The translations under genes and the position numbers were made by a program. Shown piece after piece: positions 1-33,044 of a stretch of 34,911 bases of DNA. The stretch is from Myxococcota bacterium. Its GTDB lineage: Bacteria; Myxococcota; UBA727; JAHDBA01. Below the pieces are notes generated by a model. The model did no database searches. It had not been told where the DNA came from and was given only the letters and a program-made list of their open reading frames with translations. How positions within the stretch are numbered: the stretch's first letter is position 1; the number at the start of each line of letters is the position of its first letter. Where the stretch lies: contig JAHDGS010000015.1 in assembly GCA_020627505.1 (NCBI GenBank), positions 1-34,911 on the forward strand. The letters are read 5' to 3'.

Positions 1-55
1 AACCGACGACCCCCTGCTTGCAAAGCAGGTGCTCTCCCAGCTGAGCTATGGCCCC
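1..55 (-). tRNA. tRNA-Ala (TGC), 3' end cut by window start
   Basis: On the minus strand the sequence starts GGGGCCATAGCTCAG and carries a D-arm and an anticodon arm with loop TTTGCAA, giving anticodon TGC (Ala). The T-arm, acceptor 3' half and CCA lie outside the window, so the gene is partial. It follows tRNA-Ile after 79 bp. Ile-Ala is the order usually found between 16S and 23S rRNA genes, so a 23S gene may lie just left of the window. Confidence 0.95.
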
Positions 56-134: not shown

Positions 135-211
<77 letters not shown>

Positions 212-13349: not shown

Positions 13350-14126
13350 ATGTCGATTGAGATCGCTGAATCCGAAAACCGTCCCCGTTTAGGTGAATTA
13401 TTGGTTCATGCGGGACTGATTCCAGAACAAGTCCTCGAAGACTGTTTGCGTCATCAATGGCGGTGGGGCGGTCGTATCGGTGAAATTTTGGTCGAGCAAG
13501 GTCATGTTACCCCAGCTCAGCTCATTTGGGCTTTAGCGATTCAGCTCAATTTAGAATCAATCGATCTTGATTCTTATCTCATCGACAATGATGCTGTCGC
13601 GATGTTGCCAAACTCATTTGCAAGAGCACATCGCTGTATTGCAATTCAGTTTGAAGAACGTGCTGGGAAGCGACACCTCGTTGTGGCAACAGCCGACCCC
13701 ACAATCCAAAATCTCGCGGGGCAAATTGAGCACACGACACAGCTGCCAACGATATTTAAAATCGCTTCAGAAGATGCCATCTGGGACGCCATCGGCGCAT
13801 ACTATCGTCATCAAGAAAGCATAATTCCACAGGCAGTACATGCCGACCAGAACCGAACCGACATCACATCCCTTTTGACCGTCCCACCCGATATCGCTTC
13901 CCGAATCTATACGGCCGAAGCACCTCAACCAAACGCTGATGACAGCATCACACAGCCGACACAAGTCGCACTTGAACGAACGCAAGAGCTCCAAATCGAG
14001 TTCACACCTGAAATGATTCTTTCGCTCGAACCACACCAACTCGTTGAGCTGGCTAGAAAATTAATCGCTGAACGGCGCCTATTCGCTGATGACTTAAAAG
14101 TGATCAAGAATAATTGGTTCACTTAG
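13350..14126 (+). CDS. stand-alone MshEN (GspE N-terminal) domain protein
   Basis: A 258-residue protein whose N-terminal half is an MshEN/T2SSE-N domain. It holds two copies of the RLGxLL..GLI....L signature, RLGELLVHAGLIPEQVLEDC (from residue 13) and RIGEILVEQGHVTPAQL (from residue 42). A second lobe has AMLPNSFARAHRCIAI and HLVVATADP, as in PilB. There is no ATPase domain. Residues about 160-258 are a linker and a helical tail (ELVELARKLIAERRLF). In MshE-type ATPases this domain binds cyclic-di-GMP, so the protein may be a c-di-GMP sensor for the pilus system at 19414-26702, which is inference. Its TAG stop is the first three bases inside the inverted-repeat element that follows. Confidence 0.82.
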   Translation: MSIEIAESENRPRLGELLVHAGLIPEQVLEDCLRHQWRWGGRIGEILVEQGHVTPAQLIWALAIQLNLESIDLDSYLIDNDAVAMLPNSFARAHRCIAIQFEERAGKRHLVVATADPTIQNLAGQIEHTTQLPTIFKIASEDAIWDAIGAYYRHQESIIPQAVHADQNRTDITSLLTVPPDIASRIYTAEAPQPNADDSITQPTQVALERTQELQIEFTPEMILSLEPHQLVELARKLIAERRLFADDLKVIKNNWFT

Positions 14127-14291
14127 AGTGAGTTCCAACAGCCCCGACCTGATTATTGTCTAAAACATTTGTTTTCATATCATGGCGCCGTGTAGCCGCA
14201 TATCTGGATATCCGGCGAGCACGCAACGCAGAGATAATGCAAATGAGCAAATAGGAAACGATCGGGTCAGGTCTGTTGGAACTCACTCTAA
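14123..14291. mobile_element. MITE-like long-hairpin element E1
   Basis: Perfect 19-bp terminal inverted repeats (14123-14141 and 14273-14291; left arm TTAGAGTGAGTTCCAACAG). A further pairing block is CATTTG/CAAATG (14166-14171 with 14240-14245). The centre (14194-14224) contains GCATATCTGGATAT within the stem GCCG..CGGC and is shared with element E2 at 32884-33044 (26 of 31 positions). Both elements begin TAGAGT and end ACTCTA, and both start at the TAG stop of a plus-strand gene that converges on a minus-strand gene. There is no coding capacity. It may also act as a bidirectional terminator. Confidence 0.75.
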
Positions 14292-14293
14292 TA

Positions 14294-15871
14294 TTAAAGA
14301 CTCTCCCCTCTTATCTTTTTATGGTACGCATACCAGTCCACTTTAACTTGGTTGATTTTCTCTCTGACTTTTTCAGGATTCGAACCATATTCTCGCGCCA
14401 AGAAATCAGGAAGCTCTTGCTCAATAACGGATTGCCCTATTGTTAGACCAGCCAAGTTGTCAGCTGGATAATGCACACCAGCAACCGTTCTAAAAAAGGC
14501 AACAGCATAATCAGTCTCAATAATATCCTGCATTTGCTCGGGCGTTAGATCCATGACCACTGCAAGATATAAAGAAGCAGAAGATGCAGCAGAATGCATT
14601 GCTGGCCAACTTGGATGAACCGGCGAACCCTCACTATATGCAGTAAAGTCTTCAGCTGAACTTAGGCCCATATTTTGAACGCGTTGTTCAATATCTGCCG
14701 GAGCGACAATTTCTCCTTGAGCAATTTTCCAGGCGATCTCTTCTGGGCGAGGGTAACCAACAGCCCATTTTGTCGCAAAAGCGGTGGGGGAAACCTCTGA
14801 TACAGCCCAACCGATCAAACGACTGAGTAGAACCCGACCTCGAACAAAGTCATCCTGGCTTCTGAGTGGAATGATATTGGGATCGATCCGAGCACCTTCT
14901 TTATCCAGCTTGGTCGCTAAGGTGAGGGGATGCAGTGCCGGAAAATCATTCCGAACAGATTCTGCAGCTTCGTCTTGCGAGAATCCTGAAAAAATATCAG
15001 GAATCTCAAAACCAAAGTCCCTGGAATTATTTAATCGGGCGTCTCTTGCGTCAAGCACATCACGAAACTCAGCCCAGAATTCTGCCGCTCCAACTTTATC
15101 TAATTTAAGAGAGTGAATGAATTCATTTGGGTCAATTCTAATGCCTATCTCGCCCGGTAAGGTTGGACTAACACCTAGCGTTTCTTCAAGCAGTTTCTTG
15201 CCCTCGGTGTTTAATGGATAGACCACTTCATCAACACCATGTTTTGAAAATTTAATCTCTTCCTGTAAAGTTTGTGATGCCTTTATTTTTTCAAAAATTT
15301 CACCAATCCCATAGTGATATGTAGCCTTCTCCTCTTCTGCCGAAACAAATCCATCGGCATTTCGATCGATTTCTTCTACGATCTCATCAACAAAAGTATT
15401 ATATAACTTAAGAAAATTCTGTTTCGTTAATGTCGTTTGCGTACTCTCATCCAAAGCATCACGATAAAAATTCAACAAATCTTCTGGCACATCAGATATG
15501 GCCAATTCGTCAACGACCTCATTTTTATCCAAAGTATTAAGAAATCCTGCTGCCCTTTCCTTCAGCCATTGCTGAATTTCTTTCGTGTTCACGTCTTGTG
15601 GATATGTATCGACATCAGCACCTTGACAAAAGAAATACTCAACAATAAGATTTACAATTGCCGGAATACCGATACCAATAGGCACCGAGGCGATAGCGAG
15701 GGCGTCACTTAAGCGAATCGTATCCTCAGCCGTTCGTATATCTGTCGAGCGAATATTTTGATGCGACTTCTCTAGCTTATGATGTTCCGGTTGATTCAAG
15801 TTTTTTTTGATTCCAAGTCCCACACCGGTCAATACAGCCATTGAGGCAATTGTTAGCTTCGTCTTAATCAT
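14294..15871 (-). CDS. vanadium-haloperoxidase/PAP2-type protein with EF-hand
   Basis: A 525-residue protein. The C-terminal part carries the three vanadate/phosphate-binding motifs of the PAP2/vanadium haloperoxidase superfamily: KWAVGYPRP (K368, R375), PSWPAMHS (H426) and RTVAGVHYPADN (R461, H467). The spacings Lys-7-Arg and Arg-6-His match fungal chloroperoxidase. The usual PSGH reads PAMH here, so the Ser-Gly pair that contacts the metal oxyanion is replaced. An EF-hand-like calcium loop DRNADGFVSAEE occupies residues 169-180. The N-terminus has hydrophobic segments (about 5-21 and 57-78), suggesting export or membrane anchoring. It could be an acid phosphatase or a haloperoxidase; the substrate is unknown. 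The gene's 5' end has been duplicated upstream. Confidence 0.82.
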   Translation of the reverse strand: MIKTKLTIASMAVLTGVGLGIKKNLNQPEHHKLEKSHQNIRSTDIRTAEDTIRLSDALAIASVPIGIGIPAIVNLIVEYFFCQGADVDTYPQDVNTKEIQQWLKERAAGFLNTLDKNEVVDELAISDVPEDLLNFYRDALDESTQTTLTKQNFLKLYNTFVDEIVEEIDRNADGFVSAEEEKATYHYGIGEIFEKIKASQTLQEEIKFSKHGVDEVVYPLNTEGKKLLEETLGVSPTLPGEIGIRIDPNEFIHSLKLDKVGAAEFWAEFRDVLDARDARLNNSRDFGFEIPDIFSGFSQDEAAESVRNDFPALHPLTLATKLDKEGARIDPNIIPLRSQDDFVRGRVLLSRLIGWAVSEVSPTAFATKWAVGYPRPEEIAWKIAQGEIVAPADIEQRVQNMGLSSAEDFTAYSEGSPVHPSWPAMHSAASSASLYLAVVMDLTPEQMQDIIETDYAVAFFRTVAGVHYPADNLAGLTIGQSVIEQELPDFLAREYGSNPEKVREKINQVKVDWYAYHKKIRGESL

Positions 15872-32424: not shown

Positions 32425-32886
32425 TTGAAACAAATGACCGCAGCCGGCCACGCATTGCTGACCGAAGAATATGAAACCCTCTTCAAAAAAGAGCGACCGA
32501 TTGTCGTTGCGCGTATTGCCGCAGCCGCTGCCGAAGGCGATCGTTCTGAAAATGCGGAATATATTTATGGAAAAAAAAGGCTTCGAGAAGTTGATAAAAG
32601 ACTCAAATATCTTGGCGCATTAATGAAAAATGTTCAGGTCGTACACCAACAAGATGTTGGCACGGCACGTGTCTCTTTTGGTGCCCGTGTCACATTGATC
32701 GATGAAGAAGGCTGTGAACGAATCTATCGCATCGTCGGCCAAGGCGAATCTGATGTGATCAAAGAAGGAATTTCTGTCGATGCGCCTTTTGCCAAAGCCC
32801 TACTTGGCAAATCCATTGGTGATGTCATCACCATTCATCGACCTGCAGGTGAACTCGAAGTCGAAATCCAACGCATCGAACGATAG
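32425..32886 (+). CDS. greB: transcription elongation factor GreB
   Basis: A 153-residue Gre factor that enters the RNA polymerase secondary channel and stimulates cleavage of backtracked RNA. The coiled-coil N-terminal domain carries the catalytic acidic tip GDRSENAEY (about 38-46). The following KKRLREVDKRLKYL is the GreB form rather than GreA. The C-terminal FKBP-like domain has RIYRIVGQGES and APFAKALLGKSIGDV. The start is a TTG at 32425 (giving MKQMTA) or an ATG three codons later. The gene ends in TAG, the first three bases of element E2. Confidence 0.92.
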   Translation: MKQMTAAGHALLTEEYETLFKKERPIVVARIAAAAAEGDRSENAEYIYGKKRLREVDKRLKYLGALMKNVQVVHQQDVGTARVSFGARVTLIDEEGCERIYRIVGQGESDVIKEGISVDAPFAKALLGKSIGDVITIHRPAGELEVEIQRIER

Positions 32887-33044
32887 AGTAACTTGACTAA
32901 CTTCTGGTTTAATGAATGCGACGAGAAAATCTTCTCAATCACGAAGCCACGCAGCAGCATATCTGGATATGGTGCGAGGACGCGACAAAGATTGGGGAGA
33001 TTTTACCGAGCAGACAAAAATCACAAGTTAGTCAAGTTACTCTA
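32884..33044. mobile_element. MITE-like long-hairpin element E2
   Basis: Perfect 20-bp terminal inverted repeats (32884-32903 and 33025-33044; left arm TAGAGTAACTTGACTAACTT). An inner stem pairs AATCTTCTCAATC with GATTGGGGAGATT (32928-32940 with 32990-33002), 13 pairs including two G-T. The centre (32953-32983) shares 26 of 31 positions with the core of E1. Apart from the TAGAGT/ACTCTA ends, arm sequences differ from E1 while pairing is kept. It lies between convergent greB and proB. There is no coding capacity. TA at both ends would fit insertion at a TA target. Confidence 0.75.

What the first reader, a model, noticed from the sequence alone, without database searches (positions are those of the whole stretch)
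14123..14291. E1: intergenic long hairpin with its own arms and a conserved loop core
Perfect 19-bp terminal inverted repeats surround a core (14194-14224) that matches the core of a second element 18.8 kb away, while the arms do not match. Within each element the arms remain exactly complementary. This is what selection on pairing, rather than on sequence, would produce. The element starts on the stop codon of the upstream gene and ends 2 bp before the stop of the convergent gene. It may be a non-autonomous element inserted at TA, a structured RNA, or a bidirectional terminator family.
Basis: partly seen in the sequence, partly recalled or inferred. Interest (0 to 1): 0.75.

Follow-up and report, generated by a model that had tools for sequence, protein, structure and literature searches.

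The report
Widespread mobile hairpin, ERIC-like, inserted at TA
The hairpin after this gene is one copy of a large, apparently undescribed family of small mobile DNA repeats found in several bacterial phyla: their arms can have almost any sequence as long as they pair, a small folded core stays fixed, and they often sit exactly in the stop codon of a gene.

Summary
E1 is 14124-14290 (TA to TA, 167 bp; the outermost base on each side belongs to the target site) and folds far better than shuffles (z -9). It is not one of only two copies. This genome has at least 14, seven of them near-identical. Covariance models built from them find the same element in other Myxococcota-like genomes, an Acidobacteria MAG, Pseudomonas oryzihabitans and 63 of 369 sampled genomes of that Pseudomonas's class.

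Arms and tip stem covary strongly: 22 of 27 pairs show two-sided changes. The constant part is an asymmetric internal loop (5' AAGG[A/C]GCNCCGCAG / 3' GAGGACGC[G/A]ACG). A non-canonical pair inside it covaries too (A-G with C-A; 146 cells against 3). Arm mismatches are G.T far more often than A.C on one strand (74:21), so the folded form is a single strand of fixed polarity, RNA or ssDNA.

E1 and E2 sit in the stop codons of their upstream genes. Family-wide, 25 of 60 end-mapped copies do so, where about 9 are expected.

Best reading: a non-autonomous, TA-inserting mobile hairpin of the ERIC/MITE kind, recognised through a folded core. Its mobilising enzyme was not found. Kinship with ERIC is suggestive, not proven.

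The parts
14124..14290 (+). E1 element, TA to TA (core strand = +)
   Evidence: terminal inverted repeats, TA at both ends, z -9.0
14124..14141 (+). E1 left outer arm TAGAGTGAGTTCCAACAG; its TAG is the stop codon of the upstream gene
14182..14195 (+). E1 left strand of the conserved internal loop (ATGGCGCCGTGTAG; family AAGG[A/C]GCNCCGCAG)
14196..14215 (+). E1 tip stem-loop (CCGCATATCTGGATATCCGG)
14216..14230 (+). E1 right strand of the conserved internal loop (CGAGCACGCAACGCA; family GAGGACGC[G/A]ACG)
14273..14290 (+). E1 right outer arm CTGTTGGAACTCACTCTA
32884..33044 (+). E2 element, TA to TA; starts on the TAG stop codon of the greA-like gene (32425-32886)
32928..33002 (+). E2 core region matching models R1-R3
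13350..14126 (+). upstream gene (MshEN domain) whose stop codon holds the E1 insertion
14294..15871 (-). convergent PAP2-family gene; its stop is 2 bp from the reconstructed empty site's upstream stop

Best explanation
E1 is one copy of a non-autonomous mobile hairpin element of about 160-170 bp (MITE-like in size and habit, ERIC-like in form) that inserts at TA dinucleotides, very often the TA of a stop codon. Its single-stranded form (RNA or ssDNA, of fixed polarity) folds into one long hairpin. A trans-acting factor, probably the mobilising enzyme, recognises the conserved asymmetric internal loop near the tip. The arms need only pair, so they drift as complementary strands and split into subfamilies. 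Each end begins TAG/CTA, so insertion into a stop codon leaves the gene's reading frame and stop intact. Shown here: the family, covariation, fixed core, strand polarity, TA ends, stop-codon enrichment, recent within-genome amplification. Inferred: recognition of the core by a protein, transposition through a single strand, and a duplicated TA. Not identified: the enzyme.
For: At least 14 copies in the genome, seven near-identical (96-100% by BLAST) at unrelated loci with the same boundaries. Models R1-R3 extend it to other genomes of the order, an Acidobacteria MAG, P. oryzihabitans and beta-proteobacterial contigs, and 63/369 genomes of the Pseudomonas class. Covariation: 22/27 pairs with two-sided change in 20 copies; 501 cells against 159 in 68 copies, with no slid register near it. 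Non-canonical coupling inside the loop: A-G 44, C-A 102, the two mixed A/C-by-G/A classes 3. Polarity: 74 G.T against 21 A.C in arms outside the model, 44 dissimilar representatives, p = 4e-8, sign test p = 0.0015. Stop codons: 25/60 end-mapped copies sit in a stop codon of an ORF of at least 120 codons, 9.1 expected for a random TA within 150 bp; against non-coding TAs only, 19/37 vs 13.5, P = 0.003. Neighbours convergent:divergent 15:3. The Pseudomonas site carries full or part-deleted copies in five species and none in eight.
Against: No transposase with matching ends was found: DDE_3 is absent from the genome, which is only about 70% complete, and no Y1 transposase gene looked at has a copy beside it. 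No clean single-TA empty site was recovered; Pseudomonas sites without the element have otherwise changed sequence. Polarity and pairing do not separate RNA from ssDNA. A strand-biased C-to-T mutational process could mimic part of the G.T excess.
Confidence: 0.62

Rival explanations
1. A cellular 3'-UTR RNA module: the hairpin is kept between convergent genes because it stops or trims both transcripts (a bidirectional attenuator or RNase-processed barrier), and the conserved loop binds an RNA-binding protein.
For: Convergent neighbours 15 against 3 divergent, and very short gaps (2-12 bp for E1, E2, C78, C159, C60). Single-strand polarity and a coupled non-canonical pair are typical of RNA. 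ERIC RNA is reported to alter mRNA stability in Yersinia (review PMC2229807).
Against: No T-tract or terminator signal. Seven near-identical copies at seven unrelated genes in one genome need a copying process. Seven A copies lie with the gene's mRNA antisense to the core strand, E1 and E2 sense, so the target gene's transcript does not always carry the folded strand.
Confidence: 0.2
2. An ordinary IS630/Tc1-like MITE: a DDE transposase recognises terminal sequences, and the conserved core is just descent.
For: TA ends, palindromic form, small size and multiple copies; RUP in pneumococcus is such a case by literature (PMC2229807).
Against: Terminal sequences differ between co-resident subfamilies (TAGAGTAAAC, TAGAGTGAG, TAGAGGTGG, TAGACCGAC) while the interior core is the conserved part, the reverse of a terminal-repeat-driven element. 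No DDE_3 gene in the genome. DNA-level recognition would not give G.T over A.C polarity.
Confidence: 0.1
3. Arms are kept alike mutationally, by template switching or palindrome correction, with no selection on pairing.
For: Near-perfect arms of about 20-50 bp whose sequences differ completely between copies.
Against: Strand-blind correction predicts equal G.T and A.C; 74:21 was found. It also does not explain conservation of the unpaired loop or its coupled positions.
Confidence: 0.05

Closest known systems
ERIC / IRU / RU-1 (enterobacteria, Vibrio; 127 bp)
   Same: Single long imperfect hairpin, TA ends, dispersed intergenic copies. In E. coli ERIC the arm-loop junction reads AAGGCG on the left and ACGCARACGCAG on the right, in the same place as our AAGG[A/C]GC and GC[A/G]ACGCAG; ERIC is R3's best place in two of three ERIC loci examined, in the same register.
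   Different: Shorter, different arms, extra bases in the loop. The R3 score is not significant (8.4 bits, E 0.28) and R2 does not find it. The loop resemblance beats nearly all shuffles, but only just (3/300 for the best pair; mean above all 300). The ERIC copies looked at are not in stop codons.
MITEs such as NEMIS/Correia and RUP
   Same: Small, no coding capacity, inverted ends, TA target, many copies.
   Different: Those are defined by conserved terminal repeats, and RUP has a proposed IS630 partner (PMC2229807); here the ends vary and the inner loop is fixed.
REP/REPIN with RAYT (Y1 transposase)
   Same: Mobile hairpins, single-strand logic. Y1 genes are commoner in carriers (20/23) than in non-carriers (8/16).
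   Different: REPs are 20-40 bp with a GTAG or CGTC tag (PMC3733652); no copy lies beside any of 22 Y1 loci.
YPAL / RU-2 (Yersinia, 168 bp)
   Same: Length and palindromic form.
   Different: No TA ends, variable 3-26 bp target duplications, internal repeats (PMC2229807).

Membership tests
ERIC / IRU | TA at both ends | tested here: met
   E1, E2 and most well-preserved copies run TA to TA
ERIC / IRU | TA target duplication shown by empty sites | tested here: inconclusive
   Pseudomonas sites without the element have diverged; only reconstructed empty sites
ERIC / IRU | Recognisable similarity to the 127-bp consensus | tested here: inconclusive
   R2 none; R3 8.4 bits, E 0.28; loop shuffle test 3/300
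ERIC / IRU | About 127 bp, in Enterobacteriaceae/Vibrio | tested here: not met
   161-167 bp in this genome; Myxococcota-like host
MITE (general) | Short, non-coding, inverted ends, multiple near-identical copies | tested here: met
MITE (general) | Ends shared with an autonomous element | tested here: inconclusive
   no credible pair of ends around a gene and no DDE_3, in a genome about 70% complete
REP/RAYT | 20-40 bp hairpin with GTAG/CGTC tag | tested here: not met
REP/RAYT | Copies flank the Y1 transposase gene | tested here: not met
Intrinsic terminator | GC-rich stem followed by a T run | tested here: not met
   none in 13900-14500
Any Rfam 15 family | Score at or above the gathering threshold | tested here: not met

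The most novel reading that the evidence does not exclude
A bacterial mobile element, spread over several phyla, that is recognised not by its DNA ends but by a three-dimensional motif in its folded single strand (possibly its RNA), and that preferentially enters stop codons, so that insertion is linked to sites of translation termination and leaves the genes unharmed. ERIC would be its enterobacterial branch.
Probability: 0.2. Interest if true: 0.88.

Novelty: new variant of a known kind. Interest (0 to 1): 0.66.

Why it matters
How ERIC-type repeats move is still described as not elucidated in the reviews read here (PMC2759123). Here is a far larger family with the same habit, in which the conserved part is a folded internal loop rather than the ends. 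That points to a concrete search target (a factor that binds this loop) and to a testable substrate (a single strand of known polarity). If stop-codon entry is a true target preference, it would be an unusual way for a mobile element to avoid harming its host.

Tried and rejected
(1) IS630-type partner: PF13358 gave nothing in the genome. (2) Autonomous copy found by its ends: 2-mismatch end hits occur no more often than the reversed-pattern control, and the one pair in suitable orientation (C7, 1.9 kb apart) encloses ordinary-looking genes. (3) RAYT: three Y1 genes in the genome, but 22 Y1 loci from many genomes have no significant copy beside them. (4) Rfam: nothing above gathering and only chance-level microRNA/snoRNA matches to E1. 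(5) Exact-core scans with the first motif found no other genome; the core had to be relaxed using the covariance-model hits. (6) L083, L088, L093 and L094 match the pattern but lie in coding-like sequence without the hairpin and were discarded. (7) My first own-genome end pattern had a gap range too short and was wasted. (8) An automatic end-finder that extended the arms too far gave unusable ends and was replaced. (9) YPAL: excluded by its lack of TA ends. (10) Phages and plasmids: no BLAST match to the queries tried, apart from one 37-base match; of 16 pattern hits in viral contigs only three contigs carry clear copies.

Full report
WHAT IS THERE. E1 has a perfect 19-bp terminal inverted repeat inside 40-nt arms that are 83% complementary. 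Folded as RNA it reaches -76.3 kcal/mol, z -9.0; E2 gives -69.2, z -10.2. Trimmed to the TA dinucleotides the elements are 14124-14290 (167 bp) and 32884-33044 (161 bp). An alignment of the core with six other copies from the genome is ungapped apart from two extra bases in E1.

IT IS A FAMILY. BLAST and a covariance model (R1, 8 copies) find in this 2.77-Mb, 167-contig, about 70% complete assembly: E1; E2; seven near-identical copies (C119, C78, C84, C16, C159, C60, C131; ends TAGAGTAAACC); three copies with ends TAGAGG (C50, C117, C122); one with TTAGACC ends (C147); one on C45 with a decayed right arm; and fragments. Subfamilies share the core and differ in the arms. R1 then found nine copies in another genome of the order (G006) and one in a third (G008). 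A relaxed pattern in named genomes added an Acidobacteria MAG, P. oryzihabitans, a betaproteobacterial MAG and a MAG labelled Pedobacter. R2 found about eight to ten copies in the Acidobacteria MAG and 13-15 in G008. R3 found copies at E <= 1e-4 in 63 of 369 genomes of the Pseudomonas class, with only 13 candidates scored per genome, so counts are lower bounds. Many gammaproteobacterial copies are paired, about 265 bp, two cores facing each other inside one outer stem.

WHAT IS CONSERVED. In 20 aligned copies 22 of 27 pairs show changes on both sides, 91.6% of cells pair, and sliding the partner by one to three bases drops this to 32-45%. With 68 copies, two-sided cells are 501 against 159 +/- 11 in shuffles. 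These alignments are fitted to the model, but the hairpins are also found by unconstrained folding of single copies. The constant part is the asymmetric internal loop, 5' AAGG[A/C]GCNCCGCAG and 3' GAGGACGC[G/A]ACG. Within it the pair CC/GG changes on both sides in E1, G006 and G008 copies (pair 30-147, CG 36 and GC 18). The unpaired left A-or-C is coupled to the right G-or-A: A-G 44, C-A 102, the mixed A/C-by-G/A classes 3, plus three cells with other right-hand letters. Both states occur within single genomes. This looks like a non-canonical pair; that A-G and C-A are nearly isosteric is from general knowledge, not tested.

WHICH STRAND FOLDS. In arms outside the 75-position model, taking 44 dissimilar representatives oriented by the core motif, G.T mismatches outnumber A.C 74 to 21 (p = 4e-8; by element 22 to 5, p = 0.0015). 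The core strand is therefore the one that must pair, as RNA or as ssDNA. Cruciform DNA, strand-blind arm correction and terminal-repeat-driven DNA transposition do not predict this. In the best-paired 27 representatives the counts are 16 to 10, so the signal comes mainly from less perfect copies. A strand-biased deamination process is a possible partial alternative.

WHERE IT SITS. E1 begins in the stop codon of the MshEN gene (TAG 14124-14126). Removing the element and one TA gives an in-frame TAA, two base pairs from the convergent PAP2 gene's stop. E2 does the same at greA. All seven A copies end exactly in the stop codon of an ORF of at least 253 codons. Across genomes, 25 of 60 copies with mapped ends do so for an ORF of at least 120 codons, while 5.6% of other TAs within 150 bp are in such codons (expected 9.1; no simulation above 21). 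A stricter control using only non-coding TAs gives 19 of 37 against 13.5, P = 0.003; for the own genome alone P = 5e-4. Neighbours are convergent 15 times and divergent 3 times. So part of the pattern is what purifying selection would leave in compact genomes, and part is an excess at stop codons. In the genus of P. oryzihabitans, four species besides KNF2016 carry the element at the dipeptidase stop (L170 and L171 whole; L172 and L173 part-deleted) and eight lack it; some of those carry a different hairpin repeat in the same gap.

HOW IT PROBABLY WORKS. The most economical account is a non-autonomous mobile hairpin that is recognised as a folded single strand through its internal loop and enters TA. 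Arms are free to change as long as they pair, and ends that read TAG keep a stop codon intact. The enzyme is not known: DDE_3 is absent; Y1 transposases are commoner in carriers (20/23) than in non-carriers (8/16) but have no copies beside them. Whether the recognised form is RNA or ssDNA is open.

RELATION TO ERIC. In E. coli ERIC the arm-loop junction is AAGGCG...GAG on the left and GAGCGAACGCARACGCAG on the right, in the same position as here. R3's best place in two of three ERIC loci, and second best or nearly so in the third, is the ERIC itself in the same register, but weakly (8.4 bits, E 0.28). Loop similarity exceeds shuffles (mean above all 300; best pair 3/300). A gammaproteobacterial member, L213, ends TATACCCGTC...GACGGGTATA, close to the ERIC end TATAC(T)CGTC. 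I put common descent at roughly even odds and do not file E1 as an ERIC. No source found describes this family or stop-codon insertion of such repeats, though only open-licence papers were searchable.

LIMITS. The genomes are mostly MAGs (mis-binning possible; the Pedobacter label is doubtful). E-values are rough. Copies within a genome are not independent. Ends could be mapped for only 60 copies.

Noticed in passing
L197:1462-1727, L232, L194 and other gammaproteobacterial loci: Paired version of the element, about 260-268 bp: two cores in opposite orientation inside one outer stem (Y-shaped fold); several also start on a TAG stop codon.
   Followed up: partly
L003 (G000 C20:36484-36539): A 44-bp near-perfect palindrome made of E1-type arms with no core, directly after a right end of the A subfamily: a core-less or nested remnant.
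   Followed up: partly
L070 (G000 C165 around 10120): A stop codon TAG followed by a lone A-type right end (ATGAGGTTTACTCTA): a deletion remnant still in the stop codon.
   Followed up: partly
L053 (G000 C50:36480-36660): Copy with about 20 extra bases forming a small hairpin between tip stem and right loop strand.
   Followed up: no
L174, L176, L177, L178 (Pseudomonas species, same intergenic site as L090): A different palindromic repeat (TAGGTCGGG...CCCGACCTA) occupies the gap where P. oryzihabitans has this element; the gap looks like a hot spot.
   Followed up: no
L262:2700-3650 (G000 C104): Y1 transposase gene flanked by a perfect 22-bp inverted repeat (GGGACACGCTCACGTTTCACGA); a separate mobile unit. 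Two further Y1 genes lie at C145 and C138.
   Followed up: partly
window 1-55 and 138-211, minus strand: Two tRNA genes at the contig edge, the first cut off.
   Followed up: no
IMGVR_UViG_2671180042_000002 (L288, L294), 2551306410 (L284), 3300046528 (L293): Clear copies in viral-labelled contigs, probably host flanks or prophage neighbourhoods.
   Followed up: no
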